A stretch of DNA of 64,000 bases from Hesseltinella vesiculosa (taxonomy: Eukaryota; Mucoromycota; Mucoromycetes; Mucorales; Cunninghamellaceae): contig MCGT01000053.1 in the NCBI GenBank assembly GCA_002104935.1, positions 58,915 through 122,914 on the forward strand. Direction: 5' to 3'. The position numbers were made by a program, and so were the translations under genes. The notes beneath the pieces are model-generated. The model was not told the DNA's origin. It ran no database searches and was given only the letters and a program-made list of their open reading frames with translations. Shown in pieces: positions 19,752 to 64,000 of this stretch. The number at the start of each line of letters is the position of its first letter. Positions within the stretch are counted from its first letter, which is position 1.

Positions 19752-21145
19752 CCGTAACCTCGAAAAAAAAATTGGAAAGTGTTCAAATTCCGCCCCAATC
19801 AGTGAGAGGTGTCGTGGAAATAAAACGGGGTTTTTACGTCATCAGACGTGTCTTTTTCACTTTTTTTTTCACTCAAACATGGCACTATCAACTGAAGTTA
19901 AAGCCCAAGTTTACAGAATGAAAAAACTCGGATGCAGTAACAAGGAAATCGTATCTGAATTTCAGCTTTCAACTTCTAGAATTTACCAGATAATGAACGA
20001 ATACGAAGATCGAGGCACATTCGAACGTAAAAAGGGCTCAGGAAGAAAACCAAAACTCACCGACCGTGACCGAAGGGCCCTTTCGTCGTATGTAAAAAAA
20101 AAATAGGCGAGCTCCACTTACTGACATCAAGGTGAATCTACTCAATGATGTTCACATCTGCACGATTCGCAAGGAGCTTCATGGAATGGGATACCATTCG
20201 CGTGTTGCAAAGAAAAAACCATACCTGACCGACAGACATAAAGCAGCAAGACTAGCATTTGCAAAAGCGCACAGAAACTGGTCAATTGAAGACTGGAAGA
20301 ACGTGCTATGGACCGATGAAGCGACTTTTGAAATTGGTGAAGAATCGAGGCAGGTACGCGTATGGCGTTTGAAGGACGAAGGCTACCAAGAAAACTGTCT
20401 TTTGAAGACTTTCAGAAGCAATCGATCGTCGATAATGGTGTGGGGAGGTATAGCCCATGGAAAGCGAACTGACTTGGCGATATTCCGCAAGACCGGAAGG
20501 AATGAACGCGAGACCAAGTCGAAGTCTGAGGATTTTGTGGAGCTCGCCTATGAGGGCCCTATTTCGAAGTATCAGCAGGAGAACCCTGGCTTTATTCTGA
20601 TGGAGGATGGTGCCTCCACTCACCGGAGTCTTTTGTCGAAGAAATGGAGAAAGGACCATGGTATTGAGAAGTTGGACTGGCCAGCGCAGTCGCCTGATCT
20701 GAACCCAATTGAAAACCTCTGGAAAAAAATGAAGAACCGCGTATCAGCCAAGTTTAAACCAGGAACTACGCTTGATAAGTTCAGACCGATGGTTAAAAAA
20801 GCTTGGGATGATCTTAACCCTGAGGATGATTGGAACAAGTTGATCGAATCTATGCCAGAGAGATTGAAAGCAGTGATAGATAATAAAGGAGGAAGCACGC
20901 GATGGTGAGGTTCACTAATTTTGACACCATTTTTGTCATATACCCTGTCTGCTCCCTATAATATTTCCAGAGCTCATTTTCAAATGGAAGAAAGTTCATA
21001 TACTAGGCTCCTCTCACACTAAGTTTGGTCCCATTTACTCCTGTTTTAATGATGAATATGGCCATTCAACTCAAGAGGACCATTTAAAAAAAAAAAAAAT
21101 GTTGCGGAATTTGAACACTTTCCAATTTTTTTTTCGAGGTTACGG
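19752..21145 (+). mobile_element. Tc1/mariner-type DNA transposon, 1394 bp
   Basis: Perfect 42-bp terminal inverted repeats start CCGTAACCTCG at 19752 and end CGAGGTTACGG at 21145. The element is flanked by TA dinucleotides (19750-19751 and 21146-21147), the target duplication expected for this superfamily. It carries one transposase gene interrupted by a single frameshift. Identical termini suggest recent insertion. It lies inside copy C of the 440-bp repeat. Confidence 0.95.
19879..20908 (+). pseudogene. Tc1-like DD34E transposase, frameshifted in a poly-A run
   Basis: The N-terminal helix-turn-helix region (CSNKEIVSEFQLSTSRIYQI) is in one frame (19879-20106). The catalytic part is in the next (about 20105-20908). 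The frames meet at a run of ten A (20094-20103); one base fewer would make the reading continuous. Catalytic acids are present: D in LWTDEATF, D in LMEDGASTH, and E in PIENLW, the last two separated by 34 residues (DD34E). The protein would cut and paste the element at TA sites in the nucleus. The break may be a true mutation, a sequencing error in the homopolymer, or a slippage site. Apart from this break the frame is intact. Confidence 0.9.
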
Positions 21146-35996: not shown

Positions 35997-36374
35997 TCAA
36001 CGATGTGGGCTGGATGGTTGACTTTGCGGTCCTTCGCTGGCAACAATTGAGGCGTGTTTTGATTCATTCAAGCGAATAATGATGGGGTCAACAAGAGTGT
36101 CAATGGTTGGGGCCGATTGGCTATTCTTCAAGCGTAATGCATGCTTGTGCTCTTCCTTGAGCTCCTTCAATGTCAAGAGCGTATTTTCACAAATCTACAA
36201 ATTCGCGTCATTTTTTTTTGTCAATTATCCCACAAACAAAAACAGTGTTTCACTTACGGTTAGCGTCTTGTGGAAGCAAATAAAGGCAAAAACTACCGGT
36301 AAGAAACATTGCCATCTATCTAAATCTAATAGATTAGATGGATACAAGTTGGTAGATGCATTTGTGCTAATCAT
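35997..36374 (-). CDS. hypothetical protein, about 104 aa, opposite the 5' part of the micro-exon gene
   Basis: Exons 36374-36258 and 36194-35997 with a 63-nt GTAAGT...TTGTAG intron that joins frames. The downstream exon looks protein-like: a charged helix (TLKELKEEHKHALRLKN), then DTLVDPIIIRLNESKH, then a Ser/Pro tail. The start is uncertain. An alternative first exon runs from about 36519 through the antisense of the neighbouring plus-strand exon, joining at an acceptor near 36316. A hydrophobic stretch (FLPVVFAFICF) could be coding or read-through of an intron tract. No family recognised. Confidence 0.4.
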
Positions 36375-36420: not shown

Positions 36421-39199
36421 ACGACGTTCGTGCTGCCTCCCGTGCTTCTGCTCTTTCTGCTGCTTCCGGTGTTTCCACCGTTCGATCTTCCCGTGCTTCT
36501 GGCCTTAGTGCCTCCATTTGTAAGTTTTGGTTATAGACTCCATTGGCTACTTGCTGGGCATTGCCATTGCTTATTGCCATGTTTGTTTACTCACATTGCC
36601 TTTTTTTTTTAGATGCTTCTTCTTTTTCCGGTTCAGTTCCCGCCGATGATAATGGTAAGTGCTTCGAAAAACAAGAACTAAGCAACTGCTTGTTTTTAAC
36701 TGCTTTTTCGTTATTTTTATTATTCCATTGCCTCTCTAGACAAAAACACCAGTAAGTGACATTCACAAAATGAAAAAAAAATGGTTTAAAAAAAAGGAAA
36801 AGTCAACCAATCTCCAAGAATTGTCTTTCATGCAAAGATCGCTGACTTTTTGATTTCTTCTTCTCCGCATAGAAAAAAATGGTAAGAACTTAGATCTGAC
36901 TGTTACGAAACGAGTCGGACTAACCAACACCTCTCTTAATCTGCTTCTTGTGGTTGACTCAACTAGAAAACACCCGTAAGTTTGAAGCTGGCTGTAAAGC
37001 GTTTCCAGAGAGAGGATTCACCTATTTCTTTTTTTAATCATTGCCTACCATAGAAAAAACCACCAAAAGTAAGTTGAACCTACCATCAGGAGGACACAAA
37101 TAAGATCGTGAATAATTCAACTAAAGTTTCTTTGCTTTATTTACATTAGAAAATGCAGTAGAAAACCCAGAAAATACCTCCTATGCTTATTCATCATCTA
37201 TGCCTTATGCCTCTTCTTCTTCATCTATGCCCTATGCCCCCTCCTCTATGCCTTATGCCTCTCCTTCTATGCCCTATGCCCCTTCCTCTATGCCCTATGC
37301 CCCCTCCTCTATGCCCTATGCTCCGTCTTCTATGCCCTATGCCACCACCACTGCTTCTCTGACTTCTGCCCCTGCCTCTCCTTCCAACGCCACCAAACGT
37401 AACGCAGGTGGCAACGACGAAACCCGTTTTGCTGGTAAGTTCATTACCCATTGTCGGTGAGGCAACCAGAGCCCAATGAAACTCACTTCTCATTTTTTTT
37501 CTATAGCCCGTCGTGGCATCAAGAGTAAGCAAAAAAAAAAAAAAAAAAGGATGTCAAGATCATAGTCTCTAAGTATCACCCTTTTTATTTTAGGTGCATG
37601 CCACACCGCCCAGGCACCAGGCCCCATGGTGCCTGGCTTTGACATCAACCTTGCCGTTGCCAACGCAACGGCAATCAGACTGACTGCAGCCGCTGCCGCT
37701 GCCGCTGCCGTCACCGCCACTGCTGCTGTCCCAAGTGCTGGTGACTTTTCTGCTGCTGTTCCTGCAGCTGCAGCAGCAGCTGCTGCTGCCGTCGATCCCG
37801 CTGCTGTTGCTGCCTCCGTCGTCGGTGTTCCTGCTTCGGTGGTTCCTCTTCTCTCGGTGGCTGCAGCTACCGCAGCTGCAGTTCTTGCAGCTGTACCTGC
37901 AGCTGTCCCTGGTGATGCTGCTGCCCGTCTTGTTGCCGCCGCTGTTGCTGCTGCCGTTGTTCCCGGCGCCGCTTTTTCTGCTGCCGGCGTTGCCGCCGCC
38001 GCTGCTCCCGTTGCTTCCGGTGCTTCCGGTGCTCCTGCTGCTGTCTCCGTTCCTGCTGGCCCTGCTGGCCCTGTTGTTGGCCCTGTTGTTGGCCCTGTTG
38101 TTGGCCCTGCTGGTCCCGTTGCTAGCCCTGTTGCTAGCCCTGTTGTTGGCCCTGTTGTTGGCCCTGCTGGTCCCGTTGCTGGCCCTGTTGCTGGCCCTGT
38201 TGTTGGCCCTGTTGTTGGCCCTGTTGTTGGCCCTGTTGTTGGCCCTGCTGGCCCTGTTGCTGGCCCTGCCGCTACTTCTGCTCCTGTCCCAGCTCGCGTC
38301 GCAGGAAAAAAGCGACGCGGGCACGGAGAGGACAATCAACGTTTCTCTGGTAAGCATCATTAATTTAAAGAAAACAGCGTTTTCTATCTGACACTTACAT
38401 TTATTGCTATCCCATATTATTCTTGTAGGCCGTCGTGGCCTGAAGTGTAAGTTGTTCAAAAAAAAAAAAAAAAAACGGAGTGATGGCCAAGCGAAATTGA
38501 TGTAACGCACGGTTTTTATATTCTTAGTTGGCCGCTCGCCAGGCGCGGGCCCGTCTGCCACTGTTCCGGCCGTCTGGCCATGGTCCTCCCTTGCCCTTGG
38601 CTGGGGCCCAGTTTTGCCTGTTCTCCCTGGCGTTGTTTTGGTTGCGGGCCCTGTTCGCCGGGCGACGGGCCCGCACACGGCAAAATATGCCGCCCTGTTA
38701 GCTTGCCCCCCTGCCCTCCCCAAGCTAAGCGAAAAGGGCATTCGGGGTAAGTCATAAAAAAAATCTTACATGTTGTTGACCTGTCATTATTTTTTTCCTG
38801 GTCTTAGGCAAGCTGGCTTGTCAACGCCGCCCAGCAGAGCCCAAGCCAAAGCCAAAGCCTCTCTCTTTCCGCCCTCGCCGCTCCACCACAAAGGCGGCAA
38901 TTGCAGCCAAGAGGGCGGTTAAGGCTATGGCAGGCTCTTCTGGTGCTGGGTGGCTGACCAGCCGCACCCTGGCCAATGCTGCTCTGTGCCAGGAAGTTCA
39001 TCGTGTGCTTCCTGGCACCAACTTTGGTGCCGAATTTGGTTCTGGGGTGGAGCCACCTCCACCCCATCTTTCTCGCGAGAACATGTTGCGTAAGTTATCA
39101 CTCTGTTCACCTACACATTTTATTTCGTTCTGATAGTGATCGTACTTTTTTTTTCTTATAGTCATGAAGGACGTGTTCTCGCGAGGTGGCCAAAACTAA
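36421..39199 (+). CDS. micro-exon gene: low-complexity protein with Ala and Val-Gly-Pro repeats (5' end undefined)
   Basis: Thirteen exons: 36421-36519, 36613-36654, 36740-36751, 36873-36881, 36967-36975, 37054-37068, 37150-37434, 37507-37524, 37594-38349, 38430-38447, 38528-38746, 38808-39089, 39162-39199. Six internal exons are only 9-18 nt. Every intron starts GTAAG and is phase 1, and every internal exon length is a multiple of three, so any subset can be skipped without frameshift. The product is at least 600 aa: Ser/Ala-rich start, Lys/Asn/Thr micro-exon stretch, repeats of SSMPYAP, a 252-residue Ala-rich and VVGP-repeat segment, then basic and Gly/Pro-rich segments ending in SRGGQN. 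Two 18-nt exons encode RRGIK and RRGLK. No family is recognised. The 5' exon with the initiator is not identified; an exon ending at the GTAAG near 36299 fits the phase. Confidence 0.7.
37220..37345 (+). repeat. tandem repeat encoding SSMPYA(P/S)
   Basis: Units of about 21 nt (TCTATGCCCTATGCC plus a Ser/Pro codon pair) are repeated about seven times within the 285-nt exon of the micro-exon gene. Units differ only at silent or Ser/Pro positions, so the array is coding and maintained in frame. Confidence 0.8.
38055..38268 (+). repeat. tandem 12-nt repeat encoding (V/A)(V/G)GP units
   Basis: CCTGTTGTTGGC and close variants (CCTGCTGGCC, CCTGTTGCTAGC) are repeated head to tail in the large exon of the micro-exon gene. 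They encode elastin-like Pro-Val-Val-Gly / Pro-Ala-Gly units. The reverse strand is also open, which produces long spurious antisense frames. Confidence 0.85.
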
Positions 39200-41640
39200 G
39201 GCCACCACTCGCTGGTCTTTCTGGTGTCCTGTCTTGGTCTGGCTCTGGCTCCAAACTCTGGCTGATTGTCTTCTCCGGCGCTTGGATGACTTGTTGGTAG
39301 GCAATGCTATGACGACGCTTCCCCTGTTCCCAGTGGGGTCCCACAGGGCAGCGTTCACCAAAAGCAACGAAAGAACGAAAAAAGAAAAAACGCATGCAAA
39401 GAAAAAGCATGCAAGGAAAACGCACACGTCAAAGCAACAATACCTTTTTTCATGTTTTGGACTGAATGGTACGTCAGAGCTGGAAAAAAAAAACGCTGAA
39501 ATGCTTTGCTGATCAGATGCATTGACCTATTTTTTTTTTTTTTTTCGCGAGAGACAGGAAACTTGGTGGTTGGCCAGGCCTCCTCTAGCACGGCGTCTTT
39601 GCTTTGACTCTAAACGGTCAAATCATTGGCATATGCTGGGCTATGTGGCATGGCTTCTTTTTGCCTCTAGGCTTTGGGATCATGAGGGAATGTACGGGTA
39701 TTGTTGCTCCGTGCTATCAAAAAAAAAGTTCAGTTGCTGGTGACACTGCCCGCCGGGATCCTGGGGACAGCGGAAGCCCAACTGTCGTCATAGCACCCTA
39801 CTGGCAGTCATCTTAAACAAGCCCTGACCTCCAGCCTCGCAACTCTGAGCCCAAACTACCGCCCACCAAGACAGGCGGCTCTGGTATCAAGTCAACTATG
39901 TCAACACAGGTGGTGTTGTATCGTGATGGTACAAGCCAAGCCAAGCCTTGGTCGTTTATACCTATGGCTAGCGCGTACGTATTTGCCAAGATCGTCTATT
40001 ATTGGCCATGCGCTGAAGTACCTGTGATGGCCCTCTCGTTTTGATCTATGGGCCTGTCAAGGCTGCACCCCTTGGCATGACTGGCTTCAAGCTACCCTTT
40101 GGTCAACATATCAATCAAGCTATGGTTTTTTTTTTTGCCACAGGCAATGGTGGCTAATGCCCTGAAATCAATGGATGGACGAGAGATGCACCAGTGTACC
40201 TGGCCAAATCAATGACAGATCAGCAACGTGTCAGGTACGTGAAGATGTCACATCCTCTGCCTTGTCAAGCAGTAAGGTCAGACTCTCGATATTGCAAGCC
40301 AACTACCTTTGACTCTTAGTCCATTTGAGTCATGCCAGTACCATTACACATGATTGTCAACGTTCAAGACGTTTCTCTTTGTCACTCTCAACACAAATCA
40401 GTCATGGTGGAGCAATGTTATCAAGCAAGCGTTGGTCGCATTTTGGTGATATGGTAAGTTTTGGTTGCATGACTGGGCAAGGAAATAGGCTGAAGCTTAC
40501 ACCTCTCTTTTTTTATAGTGGGAAGCATTTTTTTTTTTTTTTGGGAAACCTGGCTGCTAGGTCACTCTCACAGCACACCATTGTCCCCTTTGGGTTGGAT
40601 TTTTCATTTTTTTGGTTACAACGTCGTCAATGGTCAAGCACAATGCATGAACAAAAAGGGAGCTTTGTGGGAAGCAACGCGTTGGGTTGTTGGTGGATGT
40701 TGGTGCTGTAAACCTCTGGCAAGCAACCTCTGGTAAGCATAGTACTCTCTTGGGAGCACAAGACTTTGGTGGAATTGGCTATCATCTCTGAATACTCGAT
40801 TATGAAGGCACTTTACACTCTCGTTGGTGGTAATTTGTATGGTGGCATTATTGAACCGGTCGTCATACACGAGGCAAGGCAAGGGAAGAAACCATTGACA
40901 TCTTTGGGCGCAAGTAAGCATGTTTGTGAAAGGGAGCTACATTATAGAAGCCATCTTCTTAAGCACTGACACTTTTTATTTTCATGGTAGGGGTCTACTT
41001 ATGGAAGCATTCTCTACTTGAAAGCATCTATCAAAACGCACCTCTGGCATTACCTGGTTGGGTCAGTGGATCTTTTTCAAGCAAAACCTCGGTTGCATTT
41101 GGTGGTAGGTAAGGTTTTATGAAGGTGCGGTTATGATAAAGACTGCTAGAGCACGGGCATAACGAGATTTTTTTTTTTTTAGTGTGGTGGAACAGTTGAC
41201 ATCTCATTGGCGGCAAGAAAATGGCAACACACTTTTATGATGGCATACTCGAAGCAAGTCTCTGGCTCAAGTAAATCCTCTGACTGCCGCGATAAATAAG
41301 GTTACGTTGATAGAATACAAATGGCTTCAAGGTGGTGATGCTCACTTTTTTTTTTTAATACATCAAGATTTTATTCAAGTTTACATGGCGATACAAGCGG
41401 CTTTTGGCATTTTGACTGGTGTGGTAGTGTGTGTGTATGATTGCACTGGTGTTCTGTCTGGTAAAAAATGGCCACGATTCGACTTAAGGAATCCCACTTT
41501 GACCCAGGACAAGAAAGCGTTTGTACGCGCATTCGAACTTCATCTGGATGGGGAGCGCGAACAAATCTGTGACACGCGGTTGGCTCTTCGCTGAACAATG
41601 ACTATGCAATTGTCTTGAATTTTGACCGAGGATGACTCAA
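39200..41640. other. unresolved region downstream of the micro-exon gene
   Basis: Contains several GTAAG donors and T-rich AG acceptors (for example GTAAG at 40456, 40734 and 40919, acceptor near 40989). Short Gly/Ser-rich frames lie between (LVGGNLYGGIIEPVV near 40.83 kb; LALPGWVSGSFSSKTSVAFGG near 41.05 kb). It may be a decayed relative of the upstream gene, but I could not build a continuous model. Confidence 0.3.
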
Positions 41641-41654
41641 ACTCGAACAACTGC

Positions 41655-41740
41655 GCAATCCTGCAAAAGCACAATCCTCCAAAAAGTACAATCCTCCAAA
41701 AAGCACAATCCTCCAAAAAGCACAATCCTCCAAAAAGTAT
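41655..41740. repeat. 17-nt tandem repeat
   Basis: About five copies of CACAATCCTCCAAAAAG (the first imperfect, some with GTA for GCA). They are followed directly by a GATAAAAAA-type microsatellite to about 41830. No coding meaning is evident. Confidence 0.85.
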
Positions 41741-42410
41741 GCGATAAAAAAAAAAAAGATAAAAAAAAAAGATAAAAAAAAGATAAAAAAAAAAGATAAA
41801 AACATAGAAAAAAAAAAAAAGATAAAAAAAATCATCATTCAAAATCGCATGGCATAATAACTTGCCCTCAGCTGCTGGTAGCAAATCAAAATCACCAGCC
41901 CCTCGCGTAATACCTCTCCTCCGACTCCAATGGCATTGCTTTCTCTTGGCGCCTTCCTTTTACCATGGCAGACACTCGCATCATATACACATACGTACTA
42001 CACAACAAATTGAATAGCCTGTATAAAAATAAACGAACAGACATCATCTTGAAGATGTTGCAAAATAAACCTATTTCTTTTACTTGGTGGGTGGTGGTGG
42101 GTAGCTGGTGTATGCTGAGGTAGTTTTCAGTTGCAGCACTTTTAACGTCAACTTGGCAGTTTGGCTTGGGCCAATGGTGTAGCGGACATGGATCAGGATG
42201 AATGATAAAATAATAAAAAAAAGCATGATTGAGCCAATTTTTTTGAAGCTGGGGAATCGAAAGCGTCGATCGATGCAATCATTCAAAATCCAAAGTCCGA
42301 TTTGATGTGAATGAGGATGAAAAGATCACGTCGACTCCTCAGTGGTCTGCTTCAAAAATCATTAAACTCCAAGTCTCCAAACAAATACTAGGCAATGCAA
42401 ATGGACAAAA
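41741..42410. other. low-complexity and intergenic sequence
   Basis: GATAAAAA-type microsatellite (to about 41830), then unique AT-rich sequence without a supported gene. Confidence 0.4.
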
Positions 42411-42530: not shown

Positions 42531-43356
42531 TCTATATCTCCTCATCTTTTTTTTTCTTGCGATTCACTTAGCTGCAATGATAAAATATGACTTGTTGCAG
42601 TAGGTTTTACGTTCGCGTGCATTAGAATTTACTTTCGCGCGCACAAAAAAACAATGTAGCGGTTCGCCCGATTGGTTTGCCTGATAAAAAACATAAAAAA
42701 ATAAATCTAGTGAAAACCCTGATGAGTTCAAGAGTCGGGATCGAAAAGAAAAGAAAAAAAAAAGAGGAACAGGTGTTAATTTGTTTTATTTGTCATTGGA
42801 CGCAGGGGTTAAAAAAAAGTAATGTAGAAAGTAAAAAAAGCAGTGGAAAAAGGTCGACCCGTAATAGACGACATTGATACGACGGTACGTGGTTCCTGAG
42901 GTAAAGGTAACGGAGTGCTTACTTTGAAGCTTGCTGGAATAATTATTCTTATGAGGGTTAGAAATAGCAACCGCAGTCATGATTCTAGCTAATGATGTTT
43001 TGAACTCCTTAAAAAGTTTAAACAGTCTCTCTTGGATAATCTTTTCACTATTAACTTCAACATGTCTTTTGTGTTGGCTTCATATTCGGCTGCACTGCAT
43101 CCGTTCCTTTCATTGCGTAATGGTGGGCACTCCAGTTTGCTTGCGAGTCGCTGCATCAAGCTGACCGATGTTGATTTCCAAAAAGAGACGATGAGAGGCA
43201 GAAGGAGTAGATCCGAAAAGTCCAAATGTTGTTCCGTCTTTTCCTTGGCTGCTTGGAGGTAAGTGATGACTTCTTGTAGCCGCTTGCGTACTCTTCTGGC
43301 CGCGAGGGGCTATAGAAAAAAATGAGAGTGAGTTTCATTGGGCTCTGGTTTTTTCC

Positions 43357-43640
43357 TTACCGACAAAGGGGAATGCAAAACGGGTTGCATCGTTGCCACC
43401 TGTGCAACGCTCGGCGGGGTTTGAAGGAGAGACAGGGGCAGAACATAGGGCATATAAATGGGAGCAAAATCCATCTCGCCAAGCGTCCTATGATTGTATC
43501 CTTGTTCAGAAGGAAACGCAATGCCCGATTGTCCGTGTAGAGGTCAAATGGCTTGTCAATCAGATATTTTCGTAGCTTCCAAAACTCCAAACCACAATCA
43601 ATGTCTCACTTTCCAAGCCGGTCGGGACAAGCATCAGCAG
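43357..43640 (-). pseudogene. Ty3/Gypsy-type RNase H fragment
   Basis: The minus strand encodes KYLIDKPFDLYTDNRALRFL then GRLARWILL, matching the RNase H segment of LTR-retrotransposon polyproteins (the YTDNRAL and ARW signatures). Flanking frames are shifted and carry stops, and no full polyprotein or LTR is visible. It is a decayed remnant. Confidence 0.7.
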
Positions 43641-43949: not shown

Positions 43950-44320
43950 ATCGTCCTCCATCCAGGTGTTGTTGAAGGATCCAGCTGGTGCGTATCGAAC
44001 GAGGACATTGAAGTTGCGATGCGGCCATCAATGGCAAAAGGCTGTATTGCGTAGCGAGCTGGCGTAAAAGGACACCTCTTCGTCCAACTCATGGCCCACT
44101 ATTTGCTATGGATGTTCTTATCGAGCGAAGCAGTGATAACCATGTGTGGTCGGATATGCTTTCTTGACGAAAGGCTTCGCAGACTAAGATTAGTTGCTGG
44201 CAGGGATGGTTACAGCCACGACAATGTGAAGGCTTTTGGATAAAGCTTCTGAAAGTTTGCACATCCATGCTGTGCGATCGTGGTGCGCAATGTGATGGTG
44301 CCGGCCAGGGTTGTTGTGGA
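43950..44320 (-). repeat. degenerate duplicated segment of the HNH locus, copy 1
   Basis: Blocks 44262-44320 (CATCCATGCTGTGCGATCGT...) and 44054-44087 (GCGAGCTGGCGTAAAAGGAC...) match 45952-46005 and 45910-45943. Short conserved peptides are visible in shifting frames (WFYAPAG, VRYAPAGSFNN, EVSFYASSLR). The segment is largely broken by stops. Confidence 0.6.
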
Positions 44321-45848
44321 TGACTCCAGCTGGCGCATAGAACCATTTTGGACCAGTTGAGGGGATCTGACTGGAGCCTCGATTGCCATCAAAGTAGGTC
44401 TGCCAGTCTTTGTCTTGGTTGACAACTTCGTCGATGCATGCTTGATCGACGACTTTGTTTCCAGCGAACGAGCATATTGTGATTGCACTGACAGCCAACG
44501 AATGCAAAGGCTGAATTGCACACACGGTCTACACAAATGGCAGGGTGTGAGATAACGCAAGTTGGCTACCCGGTTGTCGGTCTTGATGGCGTTGATGTGG
44601 TCGATGACCATGCCATCGGGTCTTGGGCGGACAAACGCATGAATCACCAACGAATGCACGGTGGCGGTGGTCGGGTTGTCCCACAAGCGGTTGGGGGTGT
44701 TGGAGTCATCCAGCAAATGGACGGTGTGGTAGCCAAATACTGTTGTCCAAGGCGTCAAAACTTGCATCGATCGCTTGGAGAAGACGATGCCATTCTCGGA
44801 CACGAGATACGAGGAAAAGCCCAGGTTTCTGTACCCAAGAATGGGGCGGAACTCTGATGAAGAAAAAAAAAGAGTGAGCGAGAGCTGGGGGGAGGGAATA
44901 AAAAGGGATATACCTTGGGCAGGATCGGCGACGGAAGTGAGGTCGAGGAGGTGGGGGATGAAGGACACGGTGTCCATGTACTCGAGGTTCCCCAGCTGGT
45001 AGTCGTGGGGAACGAGGTCGAGGTGGACGAGGAGGAGGTCGGGTTGGTAGGCGGAGAAGGATTCGATGACGGCCTCCTCGAGGCGGATGCCAAACTTGTT
45101 GTTGTTGGTGTCGCGGAGGATGATGCGAGGGGCTTGGGAGAGAGGGAAGGTGGGGACGGACGTGGGGGAGCGGCGCTTGTTGTAAATAGCGCCGGTTTCG
45201 CTGATGTAATAGACGGGGCGGGTGGCGTCGGTGAACAGGTGATGCTTGAGGCGGGTCACCTCTAAAAAAAAAAGAAAAGGTGAGTGGGAGGGATAGAGGA
45301 GAGGTCAGGAGGTTACGGTTGTGAGAGTGGAGGTGGGCGAGGATGGCAGAGAGGCGGAGGTCGGTGGTGTCCTGGGACTCGACAACGAGGCTGTCGAGTT
45401 CGATGTTGTTGAGATTGCCATCGAGGTGGTGGACGGAGGCCTCGGACTCGTCGGCAGCGAGGCCAAGGAATTGGCGGGCGAGGAGGACGGCGGCGGGGAG
45501 TTCATGTAAGACATGCTTTCCGACGGACAGCTGGAAGCGGGGCTCAGCATCAGCACCGTGGTTGATGATGCCGACGCTTTCCAAGTTGGCGTTAAAGACT
45601 TGACAGCGCATGTTGATAGAGTATCCGGAAACAAGCTCGCCAACAATGAGCGTCACCTTCCATGACAAGTCCATCACCCTGGACAGGGCCTCGGAGTGCG
45701 ACATGTGCTTCTGATTTCCCGGGTGTATATGTGGCATGAGGATGGTCGCGTGGGACGACGACAAAGCGTCATTGTTGGGGTTGTCCAATTCTGGAGGGAA
45801 AAAATGGTCAGAGGGAGTGGGATAAAATATTGTGAGAGTACCATCCAT
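44210..45848 (-). CDS. multi-HNH endonuclease-like protein
   Basis: Exons 45848-45317, 45261-44914, 44853-44210 give 507 aa if the ATG at 45848 is the start. Three HNH/homing-endonuclease-like modules occur in order: VHHLDGNLNNIELDSL, then VHLDLVPHDYQLGNLEYMD, then VIDHINAIKTDNRVANLRYL. The last is the best HNH core (DH, DN, NL), preceded by VHSLVIHAFVRPRPDG as in phage and organelle HNH enzymes. HNH proteins cut DNA with a metal ion; the first two modules lack parts of the motif and may be inactive. The two introns are phase 1 and restore frame. The C-terminal about 100 residues are doubtful because a second frame (44525-44190) also looks protein-like. Flanking DNA holds duplicated pieces of this locus. 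Confidence 0.6.
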
Positions 45849-48558: not shown

Positions 48559-50729
48559 ATGCTGCTCCCCTATATATCCCCTGACAGCCAAGGCATCACT
48601 GTCACCGTGTGGCAAAAAGCGATCACGATTTGGCAGCAGCAATTGGTGCAGTGGCTCTCGATGGACAATGCCGATTTTGAAAAAGTGATTCAGCAAGATG
48701 ACCTGGCGTCTTGGATCCTCGAGACCCTTCAACAACAGCTGGACAACGACAATGTCGATGGCCAATTACTACGCGGCATCTTTTTAGTGTATATGCGCAT
48801 AGGCAATCAAACGCCTGCAACGCCATCCAAACTGACGACCATGACGGGTTTGGACACGTTTGCTTTGGTCTACGCCCGTACCAATCCACACCTGGTCAAT
48901 GTCTGTGTTTCCCACATCTTGACGGAACAACATGTTCTAGCCGACCAATATCAGCAATCGCTTGACCCTTTACTGACCTTGCTTGATGCTTGGGCAGGGC
49001 AGCTACCATCCTTGGCTGCTCAATGGCAAGCACACCCCGACGACCTGGACGACATGCTTCTCATCCTTGATCGCGTTCTTGTCCTGGCCAGATTGCTCGA
49101 AGCCAAGGTTACATGTAGCCGCCCGTTACTCACGCAGCTGATCCCAACCGTGATGCAATGCTACCAACTGCTCACAGATAACCTCCCGTCTCTTCCACTC
49201 ACCGAATCTGCCGCTGGCCACCGCATCTTCCTCATCAAGCAATGCCTTGTCCACGCCTTTGATACCATGGTGTCTATCAAGTTTATTGACCCGCTCCGAG
49301 CTGCTGATGGCGAGAAAAACAACGAGGCCCTGACGACACTGGCTGTCACGCTGTCCGAGGACGTGCTCGAGTGGGTAGAGCAGTGCGAACCGAGTGCTAC
49401 CAAGACTTCCTTACTGGACGCGCCATTGCTAGTCGACTGGCAGGTCGAATGCAACTTTTCACAACAATGCCATGACCTCAACAAGACTATCTTCCACGAT
49501 GACAATGAGCAGCTGGGCTTCCTTGCTTTGGTCTTTGACTCGTACACTGCAGACATGTCGCCCTGGAAACTAAAGCAAATGCAGCACCACCCCATATCGA
49601 CGCCAATGACTATGCCAAACTCGGTTGACTCTACCGCCTATCAACAACAGCCACAGCCACAGCCAGACACCAATACCGCTGAGCTAATTGCTCAAATCAA
49701 GGACATGTTCCCCGACCTTGGTGACGGTTTTATTCAATCATGCTTAGCAGCCAACGACAATCAAGCTGAGCAAGTCATCATGCAGCTCCTGGAAGACAAC
49801 CTCCCACCAGCCCTTGCTAGCCTCGACCGATCCATGTCCCTCCTAGACCTGTCTTCCTTCGCTGCCGTCCCACCTTCATCCACCAATGTCCTTGATTCTC
49901 GGCACAACGTGTTTGACAATGATGCCTTTGACGTGTTTGCTGGCAAGAAAATGGAAAAGGATAATGTCATTGTTGGCAAGAAAGAGTAAGTTGGAGGAGG
50001 AAATGCGGCCTGTGAAACTCACTCCTTTTTTTTCTGCTACTCTAGCAAGGGGACCACCGACACCATGCTCAAGGAAAAGAAGTATACCTCGGACGAGAAA
50101 TCGAAATGGCTACAGCGCGTCTATGATATGTACGATGACGAAATCGATGATACCTACGATTCGGTCAATGAGGTCAGTGGCCCTGTGGATCTGGCAGCAG
50201 TAGATGAATCGGGTGGTGCGGACTTGGTGCGCAAGACGACCGTCACTGTCGACCCCGGTGTGCTGAATGAAAAAGAATTGGTGCATGTGTTTGTGGATCA
50301 CCCTGACGTCTTTGAACGCTCGGCCAATGCCAGGCGCTCTAAAGCCAGAGATGCCCTGCGGAAGAAGACCGACATGACGGATGAGCAACTTGAAGGCTGG
50401 GCCATTATGTTCAATCGTAACGTAAGTTAGCATAAACATAAAACACGAGGGCATAGCAAACTTATATTTTTACACTTTCCATTTGCCAGCCTCGGAAGCA
50501 ACGCATCCTGGATAACTACCGACTCTTTGACGGGTCACAAGACGCAGTCGGCACCGAAACAAAGATCCAACAATCCCAATCGCAGTCTTCACCCAAGCCT
50601 ACACGTCCACCACCCTCCGAAGCCAAGCAACAAGCTTACAAGGAGAAGAACAAAGCTCGGTTTGCAAATCATCAGCGCAAGAAGATGCACGACAAGAAAC
50701 TTGCAAAAGCGGCTCCTCCTGCGCTATAG
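48559..50729 (+). CDS. ASCC2/Cue3-like ubiquitin-binding protein of the ribosome-quality trigger complex
   Basis: Exons 48559-49985, 50046-50421, 50490-50729; 680 aa. A CUE domain sits at about residues 373-420 (TAELIAQIKDMFPDLGDGFI, then LLEDNLPPAL), which binds ubiquitin. The N-terminal helical half (YISPDSQGI, NPHLVNVCVSHIL, FIDPLRA) and the C-terminal basic tail (YKEKNKARFANHQRKKMHD) fit human ASCC2 and yeast Cue3/Rqt3. That protein joins the Slh1/ASCC3 helicase to split stalled, ubiquitinated ribosomes. Both introns restore frame. The start ATG opens a protein-like MLLPYISPDSQGI segment and no earlier in-frame ATG is credible. The orthologue call is inferred from domain order. Confidence 0.88.
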
Positions 50730-61626: not shown

Positions 61627-64000
61627 CTTAAACCCCCTGAACCTTTTTTTTTTTTTTGAACCTTTTTTTTTTTTTTTTGAACCGTTTGAACCGTCTGAAC
61701 CGTTTGAACCGTTTGAACCGTTTGAACCGTCTGAGTTTGAACCGTTTGAACCGTTTGAACCGTTTGAACCGTTTGAACCGTTTGAACCGTTTGAACCGTT
61801 TGAACCGTCTGAGTTTGAACCATCTGAACCGTTTGAACCGTTTGAACCGTTTGAACCGCCTGACCTTTTTTTTTTTTTGTTTTTTTGAACCGTTTGAACC
61901 GTTTGAACCGTCTGAACGTTTTGAACCGTTTGAACCGTTTGAACCGTTTGAACCGTTTGAAACCGTCTGAGTTTGAACCGTCTGAGTTTGAACCGTCTGA
62001 ACCGTTTGAACCGTTTGAACCGTTTGAACCGTTTGAACCGTTTGAACCGTTTGAACCGTTGACGTTTGAACCGTTTGAACCGTTTGAACCGTTTGAACCG
62101 TTTGACCGTTTGAACCGTTGAACCGTTGAACCGGTTTGAACCGTTTGAACCGTTTGAACCGTTTGAACCGTTTTGAACCGTTTGAACCGTTTGAACCGTT
62201 TGAACCGTTTTGAACCGTTTGAACCGTTTGAACCGTTTGAACCGTTTGAACCGTTTGAACGTCGTTTGAACCGTCTGGTTTGAACCGTTTTGAACCGTTT
62301 GAACCGTTTTGAACCGTTTGAACCGTTTGAACCGTATTTGAACCGTTGACTGAACCGTACTTGAACCGTTTGAACCGTTTACGTGAACCGTTTGAAACCG
62401 TTTGAACCGTTGACTTTGAACCGTTTGAACCGTTGAACGTTTGAACCGTTTGAACCGTTTGAACCGTTTGAACCGTTTGAACCGTTTGAACCGTCCTGAA
62501 CCGTTTGAACCGTCTGAACCGTTTGAACCGTTTGAACCGTTTGAACCGTTTGAACGTTTGAACCGTTTGAACCGTTTGAACCGTTTGAACCGTTTGAACC
62601 GTTTGAACCGTTTGAACCGTTTGAACTTTGAACCGTTTGAACCGTTTGAACCGTTTGAACCGTTTGAACCGTTGAACCGTTTTGAACCGTTTGAACCGTT
62701 TGAACCGTTTGAACCGTCTGAGTTTGAACCGTCTGAGTTTGAACCGTTTGAACCGTTTGAACCGTTTGAGAACCGTTTGAACGTTTGAACCGTTTGAACC
62801 GTGAGTTTGAACCGTCTGAACCGTTTGAACCGTTTGAACCGTGTTTGAACCGTTTGAACCGTTTGAACCGTTTGTTTGAACGTTTGAACCGTTTGAACCG
62901 TTTGAACCGTTTGAACCATTTGAACCGTTTGAACCGTTTGAACCGTTTGAACCGTTGAACCGTTTGAACCGTTTGAACCGTTTGAACCGTTTGAACGTTT
63001 GAACCGTTTGAACCGTTTGAACCGTTTGAACCATTTGAACCGTTTGAACCGTTTGAACCGTTTGAACCGTTGAACCGTTTGAACCGTTTGAACCGTTTGA
63101 ACCGTTTGAACCGTTTGAACCGTTTGAACCGTTTGAACCGTCTGAGTTTGAACCGTGAACCGTTTGAACCGTTTGAACCGTTTGAACCGTTTGAACCGTT
63201 TGAACCGTTGAACCGTTTGAACCGTTTGAACCGTTTGAACCGTTTGAACCGTTTGAACCGTTTGAACCGTTTGAACCGTTTGAACCGTTTGAACCGTTTG
63301 AACCGTTTGAACCGTTTGAACCGTTGAACCGTTTGAACCGTTTGAACCGTTTGAACCGTTTGAACCGTTTGAACCGTTTGAACCGTTTGAACCGTTTGAA
63401 CCGTCTGAGTTGAACCGTCTGAAACGTTTGAACCGTTTGAACCGTTTGAACGCTTTGAACCGTTTGAACACGTTGAACCGTTTGACACGTTTGAACCGTT
63501 TGAACCGTTTTAACCGTTTGAACCGTTTGAAACGTCGAGTTTGAACCGTCTGAACACTTGAACGTTTGAACCGTTTGAAACGTTTTACAACGTTTGAACC
63601 GTCGTAACCGTCGTATCCGTTTGGACCGTCGTTTAACCGTTTGAACCCTTTGAACGCGTTGTTGAACCGTCGTTACCGTCTGAACGTTTGAACCGTTTGG
63701 ACCGTTTGAACCGTTTGAACCGTTTGAACGTTTGAACGTTTGAACCCTGTGAACCGTTTGAACCGTTTGAAACCCTTTGAACCGTTTGAACCGTTTGAAC
63801 CGTTTGAACCGTTTTGAACCGTCTGAGTTTGAACCGTTGAACCGTTTGAACCGTTTGAACCGTTTGAACCGTTTGAACCGTCTGAACCGTTTGAACCGTT
63901 TGAACCGTTTGAACCGTTTGAACCGTTTGAACCGTTTGAACCGTTTGAACCGTTTGAACCGTTTGAACCGTCTGAGTTTGAACCGTCTGAACCGTTTGAA
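61627..64000 (-). repeat. 9-bp satellite, inverted block, runs off the window
   Basis: The same unit in opposite orientation (TTTGAACCG). It carries mirrored landmarks of the forward block: GAACCGCCTGACC then a T-run near 61850-61880. Units are regular near the start; from about 62100, units of 8 or 10 nt and substitutions become common. It extends beyond 64000. Confidence 0.95.

What the first reader, a model, noticed from the sequence alone, without database searches (positions are those of the whole stretch)
36421..39199. Micro-exon gene with only phase-1 introns and skippable exons
Thirteen exons, six of them 9, 9, 12, 15, 18 and 18 nt, are flanked by near-perfect GTAAG donors and T-rich AG acceptors. 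All introns are phase 1 and all internal exons are multiples of three, so every combination of exon skipping keeps frame. The product is low-complexity and modular. The layout recalls the micro-exon genes of schistosomes, which generate protein variants by skipping symmetric exons. I know of no described fungal equivalent of this sequence. Variant production here is inference.
Basis: partly seen in the sequence, partly recalled or inferred. Interest (0 to 1): 0.9.

Follow-up and report, generated by a model that had tools for sequence, protein, structure and literature searches.

The report
Fungal gene family with micro-exon cassettes
In a soil mould, the window holds one headless copy of a multi-copy gene family built from tiny, frame-neutral exons; sister copies have gained and lost blocks of these exons in the DNA itself, which resembles the micro-exon genes of parasitic worms and aphids, and no relative was found outside this genome.

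Summary
Thirteen exons with GTAAG donors and TAG acceptors lie at 36421-39199; all 12 introns are phase 1 and six exons are 9-18 nt. The genome is Hesseltinella vesiculosa, Mucorales. The C-terminal region occurs at 12 loci, this one included. Splice models of 10 relatives, built without a phase rule, give 145 of 148 phase-1 introns and 133 of 138 internal exons divisible by three. Exon indels between copies are multiples of three in 36 of 38 cases, intron indels in 3 of 24.

Two corrections. First, the relatives begin with a 10-nt exon (ATGACTACCG or similar); window homology starts just after that ATG. This copy has lost start codon and promoter; the neighbouring host gene is cut at the same place. 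Second, variation is shown in the genome, not in splicing: the head exon of a cassette occurs once, three or four times in different copies, in frame, and one copy lost a micro-exon in frame. Exon skipping remains inference.

It is not a schistosome-type micro-exon gene. The closest architecture is aphid bicycle genes. Function is unknown.

The parts
36292..36298 (+). Remnant of coding exon 1 (ACTACCG). The ATG present in the 10 relatives examined is absent here; family homology begins at this base
36312..36341 (+). Hairpin-forming stretch in intron 1, strongly conserved in the 11 copies aligned (9 of 10 predicted pairs kept in 11 of 11, one in 10 of 11); no covariation support
36613..36654 (+). 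exon 3, 42 nt, SGSVPADDN module, head of the exon cassette that is amplified in relatives
36740..36751 (+). micro-exon 4, 12 nt
36873..36881 (+). micro-exon 5, 9 nt
36967..36975 (+). micro-exon 6, 9 nt
37054..37068 (+). micro-exon 7, 15 nt
37150..37434 (+). exon 8, 285 nt, MPYAPSS repeats; its end encodes the first part of the KR..GND..RFxxRRGxK motif
37507..37524 (+). micro-exon 9, 18 nt (RRGIK); lost by in-frame deletion in copy C34
37594..38349 (+). exon 10, 756 nt, Ala/Val-rich stretch and GPV repeats, start of the second motif
38429..38446 (+). micro-exon 11, 18 nt (RRGLK)
38528..38746 (+). exon 12, 219 nt
38808..39089 (+). exon 13, 282 nt, part of the C-terminal region found at 12 loci
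39162..39199 (+). last exon 14, 38 nt, with stop
39209..42213 (.). Apparently non-coding tail duplicated with the gene; its core (about 39209-40057) aligns in the 11 copies compared; the first 1.64 kb after the stop diverges less than exons or introns in 3 of 3 comparisons
43284..43443 (-). Inverted fragment of the same family (exon 8 end to micro-exon 9 region)

Best explanation
The locus is one 5'-truncated copy of a fast-changing gene family of Hesseltinella vesiculosa for which I found no relative elsewhere. SHOWN: the 10 relatives modelled start with a 10-nt coding exon; their splice models run through 11 or more introns, nearly all phase 1, with nearly all internal exons multiples of three; indels between copies keep the frame in exons and not in introns. 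SHOWN: blocks of exon plus intron have been added or lost without breaking the frame, which the uniform phase permits. The head exon of a cassette (30-39 nt, SGxVPADx, followed by 12-nt and 9-nt micro-exons) occurs once, three or four times in different copies, and copy C34 lost an 18-nt exon by an in-frame deletion. SHOWN: gene and a conserved, apparently non-coding tail were duplicated together as DNA segments of about 6-8 kb; two copies are circularly permuted relative to a third, which points to a circular intermediate or a lost tandem stage. INFERRED: the micro-exons are spliced in constitutively by intron definition, and protein diversity comes mainly from genomic cassette changes and repeat changes in the long exons rather than from regulated skipping. 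INFERRED: the product is a disordered, intracellular, low-complexity protein with two basic RFxxRRGxK motifs; its biological role is unknown. INFERRED: the window copy is not expressed as this protein, since it lacks start codon and promoter.
For: 12 loci carry the C-terminal region. ATG exon in 10 of 10 relatives examined, absent in the window. 145 of 148 introns phase 1 and 133 of 138 internal exons x3 in 10 relatives, with intron lengths spread 45/61/42 mod 3. Exon indels x3 in 36 of 38, intron indels in 3 of 24 (Fisher p 2.4e-11, optimistic because indels shared by related copies are counted more than once). Cassette repeats in C1b and C4b, longest matches 73-82% identical including introns. 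C34 fuses exons 8 and 10 into one 837-nt exon in frame. The homology of the host gene to its C22 paralog and of the window copy to its relatives end at the same junction, 36292-36294. Circular permutation of C67, C24a and C34. No homolog found in protein, NCBIfam or solved-structure sequence searches beyond one weak low-complexity hit and one hit far below cut-off.
Against: No transcript evidence of any kind. Splice matrices were trained on this gene. With the first, stricter settings 4 of 10 relatives gave no sensible model, and with the second 2 of 10 (C1a, C1b) gave mixed phases, traced to a CAG acceptor of exon 2. The 3' ends of the C1a, C1b, C4a and C4c models are uncertain. Whole-CDS dN/dS is 0.40-0.67, with dS above intron divergence, so selection on the protein sequence is weak or the estimate is disturbed by repeats. 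The window frame is open upstream to 36019 with in-frame ATGs, so a fusion start cannot be excluded. The protein searches scored at most 7999 candidates each, and low-complexity words dominate the query.
Confidence: 0.72

Rival explanations
1. Micro-exon gene in the functional sense: regulated skipping of the symmetric exons makes many protein variants from one locus, as in schistosomes.
For: All internal exons symmetric in the window; 12 of 12 single skips and 64 of 64 micro-exon skip combinations are stop-free in the window and in C67; layout kept in 10 relatives.
Against: No RNA. Donors are uniformly strong and introns short, which fits constitutive splicing (inference). In C4b 13 of 15 single skips and 96 of 128 micro-exon skips are stop-free, so skippability is not strictly kept. 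Symmetry is equally explained by cassette duplication.
Confidence: 0.2
2. The repeated unit is itself a mobile or selfish element; the micro-exon protein is its cargo or a driver-like product, and the conserved non-coding tail is needed for its spread.
For: Dispersed copies, circular permutation, tail less divergent than exons, no relatives found elsewhere, rapid change.
Against: No transposase or recombinase was recognised inside the unit: the gene's product matches Pfam only through low-complexity models, and by eye the tail has no frame that survives its indels (no formal coding test, and tail ORFs were not scanned against Pfam). Copy ends differ between loci and no target-site duplication was established.
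Confidence: 0.2
3. The spliced frame is an accident of GC-rich repeats, or the true gene is on the opposite strand (minus-strand ORFs of 281 and 383 aa).
For: Minus-strand ORFs exist at 37490-38335 and 37590-38741.
Against: Those ORFs run across predicted introns, where indels between copies are mostly not multiples of three. Plus-strand splice sites are kept in relatives. The plus-strand chain is the top-scoring gene of the window.
Confidence: 0.04

Closest known systems
Bicycle genes of aphids (PMC9168663, passages read)
   Same: Many very small internal exons, almost all starting at codon position 2, that is phase-1 introns; rapid divergence; multi-copy family hard to find by sequence.
   Different: No sequence comparison with bicycle proteins was run; only three cysteines in the 582-aa C67 product, so no set of CYC motifs; no secretion signal seen; several long low-complexity exons; fungus, not insect.
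Schistosome micro-exon genes, MEGs (PMC5825161, passages read)
   Same: Short symmetric exons, modular protein.
   Different: Micro-exons are about 4-9% of the CDS in three copies summed instead of about 80%; no signal-peptide-like start; alternative splicing not shown; diversity seen at the DNA level.
SP7-like effectors of arbuscular mycorrhizal fungi (PMC11333574, passages read)
   Same: Fungal family with repeats and a conserved intron position.
   Different: The paper reports no hints of SP7-like proteins in Mucoromycotina; SP7-like proteins have signal peptides; no micro-exon cassettes are mentioned in the passages I saw.
Xlr2 microexon of Trichoderma (PMC11121469, start of abstract and passages read)
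   Same: A functional fungal microexon; [quoted passage not shown]
   Different: One regulated microexon in a transcription factor, not a gene family made of symmetric micro-exons.

Membership tests
Schistosome MEG | About 80% of the coding region in symmetric exons of 6-36 bp | tested here: not met
   Internal exons of 36 nt or less total 81 of 1809 nt in the window, 117 of 1749 in C67, 159 of 1731 in C4b (my sums from the lengths)
Schistosome MEG | Internal exons symmetric | tested here: met
   12 of 12 in the window; 133 of 138 in 10 relatives
Schistosome MEG | Secreted or membrane-anchored product with signal peptide | tested here: not met
   N-termini of 4 of 4 models tested are polar; best 19-residue Kyte-Doolittle mean starting in residues 1-20 is 0.04-0.55. 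No signal-peptide predictor was available; 3 of the 4 models have hydrophobic stretches further in, so a membrane anchor is not excluded
Schistosome MEG | Protein variants made by exon skipping | not testable with these tools
   No transcript data held
Aphid bicycle genes | Internal exons tiny and nearly all starting at codon position 2 | tested here: inconclusive
   Phase met: 145 of 148 introns phase 1. Size only partly: several internal exons are about 200-840 nt
Aphid bicycle genes | CYC motifs (exact spacing recalled) | tested here: not met
   Only three cysteines, far apart, in the 582-aa C67 product printed (read by eye)
SP7-like effectors | Signal peptide | tested here: not met
   No hydrophobic N-terminus in 4 of 4 models
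SP7-like effectors | Family sequence signature | not tested
   The signature was not compared; the paper reports none in Mucoromycotina (passages)

The most novel reading that the evidence does not exclude
A fungal gene family whose all-phase-1 micro-exon layout lets the genome build proteins from interchangeable exon cassettes, spread through circular DNA as gene plus conserved non-coding tail. Its rapid change, apparent restriction to one lineage and dispersed copies would fit a genetic-conflict role (meiotic driver or self/non-self recognition) in Mucorales.
Probability: 0.15. Interest if true: 0.88.

Novelty: new variant of a known kind. Interest (0 to 1): 0.68.

Why it matters
Gene families made of tiny same-phase exons are described in schistosomes and aphids, where they encode fast-evolving secreted proteins. 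A family with a similar layout in a mould, without a recognisable secretion signal, suggests that the layout arises repeatedly and that its use may be genomic cassette shuffling rather than alternative splicing. Because copies with one, three and four cassette heads coexist in one small genome, the question of what all-symmetric micro-exons are for becomes testable with one long-read cDNA experiment. My searches found no matching protein, not even one annotated in this species, so such genes may be missed by annotation in other fungi (inference; the searches score a capped candidate list).

Tried and rejected
Conserved peptide from retained intron 1: the start of intron 1 is strongly conserved in 11 copies, but the variable columns of alignment A1 after the ATG fall on codon positions 1, 2 and 3 in 8, 6 and 7 cases (my count), so a retained-intron peptide is not supported. 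A hairpin that pairs the 5' splice site in the window fold is not part of the consensus fold, which keeps only an inner stem with no two-sided changes.

Tail as second gene or known RNA: by eye no frame survives the indels, and the six Rfam hits are all far below gathering scores and lie in the GC-rich exon repeats.

The Pfam 'male specific sperm protein' hit is above that model's cut-off (26.1 against 21.2 bits), but lies in the GPV repeats and was discarded as a low-complexity match. NCBIfam gave one hit far below cut-off; the sequence search of solved structures gave none.

Exons evolving faster than introns: odds ratio 1.3-1.7 in 5 of 5 comparisons of non-repeat exons, but p < 0.05 in only 2 of 5 (W-C19 and C67-C24b). 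I claim only that exons are not slower.

First splice searches: one search gave no sensible model for 4 of 10 relatives; one search mixed phases for 2 of 10. Acceptor scoring was softened to allow CAG before the counts. The three introns that are not phase 1 are in C1a, C1b and C4a.

Dropped before counting: loci with only partial matches (C1:36k, C4:521k, C35, C7, C45) were not modelled. The last exon of C19, which reads on to 128 nt, was cut to 38 nt; C34 was left out. One search kept only predictions with three or more exons and score 25 or more.

Full report
ORGANISM. The window is C49:58915-122914 of a 27.05-Mb, 85-contig assembly. The window protein at 48559-49989 is 100% identical over its length to Hesseltinella vesiculosa DM01DRAFT_1411542, whose contig has 122,914 bp, the length of C49. 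Next best named hits are Gongronella butleri (44%) and Absidia species (36-37%). So this is a Mucorales mould.

OBSERVATION. Thirteen exons at 36421-39199, all 12 introns GTAAG...TAG and phase 1, spliced frame open for 599 aa. In a splice-chain search over both strands of the whole window without a phase rule, this is the top-scoring gene (13 of 13 introns phase 1, the first joining a chance upstream exon at 36141), while the nine other multi-exon predictions kept show phases 10/8/9, 6 of 18 internal exons divisible by three and none of 18 nt or less.

FAMILY. DNA search of the own genome gives near-full copies on C67, C24, C19 and C34 (87-93% identity) and diverged ones on C24, C1 and C4. The C-terminal region is found at 12 loci, the window included (13 rows, one locus twice). 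I modelled 10 relatives that have a start; the window copy (W) and a partial copy at C1:36k were not among them. Without a phase constraint, and after allowing CAG acceptors, 145 of 148 introns are phase 1 and 133 of 138 internal exons are multiples of three, while intron lengths are spread over the three classes (45/61/42). Stricter settings had failed for 4 of 10 and given mixed phases for 2 of 10; I traced the latter to the CAG acceptor of exon 2 in C1a and C1b.

CODING CONSTRAINT. Comparing W with C67, C24a and C19, exon indels are multiples of three in 36 of 38 cases (the two exceptions are consecutive 1-nt gaps in one repeat exon of C19) and intron indels in 3 of 24 (p = 2.4e-11). Indels shared by related copies are counted more than once, so the p value is optimistic. 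Whole-CDS dN/dS is 0.49-0.67 within the W clade (10 pairs) and 0.40-0.62 in a set of five copies mostly from different clades (10 pairs); over the C-terminal part it is 0.44-0.98 within the W clade, on few changes. Intron divergence is below dS. Non-repeat exons diverge with an odds ratio of 1.3-1.7 relative to introns in 5 of 5 comparisons, p < 0.05 in 2 of 5. The 1.64 kb after the stop diverges least (0.012-0.030 in three comparisons). Its core aligns in 11 copies, by eye without a conserved frame; Rfam has no match near a gathering score.

THE WINDOW COPY IS HEADLESS. Ten of ten relatives examined begin with ATG and a 10-nt exon ending at a GTAAG donor; W homology starts exactly after that ATG (36292), with AAA in its place, and I found none of the upstream sequence shared by relatives. 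On the other side of the junction is the 3' end of a minus-strand host gene; the match of W to its C22 paralog ends at 36294, while the paralog's frame appears to continue upstream. The junction therefore seems to cut both genes. The W frame upstream is open to 36019 with in-frame ATGs, antisense to the host gene; a fusion product cannot be excluded but seems unlikely.

MODULARITY IS GENOMIC. In C1b the head exon of a cassette (36-39 nt, SGSVPADD or alike) occurs four times, followed by 9-nt exons three times and 12-nt exons twice; in C4b the head exon (30-39 nt) occurs three times, with two 12-nt and two 9-nt exons. Head-to-head spacing is about 280-330 bp, and the longest matches between cassettes are 73-82% identical over exons and introns. 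The W clade and C24b have one head exon. C34 lost 18-nt exon 9 with its two introns and fused the neighbouring exons in frame. The motif KR...GxD..RFxxRRGxK occurs twice per protein in the four models examined, completed by an 18-nt exon; in C1b the first is altered. Uniform phase is exactly what lets such blocks be gained and lost. Skipping is also possible on paper: 3616 of 4096 combinations and 64 of 64 micro-exon-only combinations are stop-free in W, but no RNA evidence exists here.

HOW COPIES SPREAD. C67 and C24a hold the same 7.3 kb cut at different points (A-B against B-A, A about 366 bp), and C34 is permuted too, with a deletion. A circular intermediate or a lost tandem stage explains this. 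Segment A contains a member of a dispersed repeat with 48 listed matches in the genome, a lower bound.

RELATIVES ELSEWHERE. Full-length search: one weak hit over 9% of the query; the C-terminal part: none. Each scored at most 7999 candidates, so distant homologs may be missed; even this species' own annotated proteins did not appear. No useful Pfam, NCBIfam or PDB-sequence match. Other Mucorales genomes could not be searched at the DNA level.

LITERATURE. Searches for micro-exon genes in fungi, Mucoromycota and Mucorales listed no described equivalent (open-access library only, listings seen). Passages read: bicycle genes have tiny exons that start at codon position 2; MEGs have about 80% of the coding region in 6-36-bp symmetric exons and are almost without exception secreted or membrane-anchored; SP7-like effectors show no hints in Mucoromycotina; functional microexons were called new for filamentous fungi in 2024.

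VERDICT. A real and unusual gene family.

Noticed in passing
L009/L029 (C67), L010/L032 (C24), L012/L031 (C34): Copies C67 and C24a are circular permutations of the same 7.3-kb segment, and C34 is permuted with a deletion, pointing to a circular intermediate or a lost tandem stage.
   Followed up: partly
C1:1.46/1.51 Mb (L015, L016) and C4:481k/532k (L019, L018): Two pairs of family copies, 96% identical within each pair, lie about 45-51 kb apart in opposite orientation on one contig.
   Followed up: no
window 39209-40057, copies in L009-L012 and L014-L019: Apparently non-coding tail aligned in 11 copies and less divergent than the gene's own exons and introns; role unexplained.
   Followed up: partly
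window 36312-36341: Strongly conserved hairpin-forming stretch within intron 1 in the 11 copies aligned.
   Followed up: partly
window 61676-64000: 9-bp minisatellite TTTGAACCG, about 264 copies, running to the end of the contig.
   Followed up: no
window 43357-43602 (-), 44210-45259 (-), 20132-20908 (+): Reverse-transcriptase RNase H fragment, an HNH_3 endonuclease ORF with a weak NUMOD4 match, and a Tc3-like DDE_3 transposase ORF.
   Followed up: no
L009:8220-8592 (-): A dispersed repeat of about 220 bp with 48 listed matches in the genome, found near several family copies.
   Followed up: no
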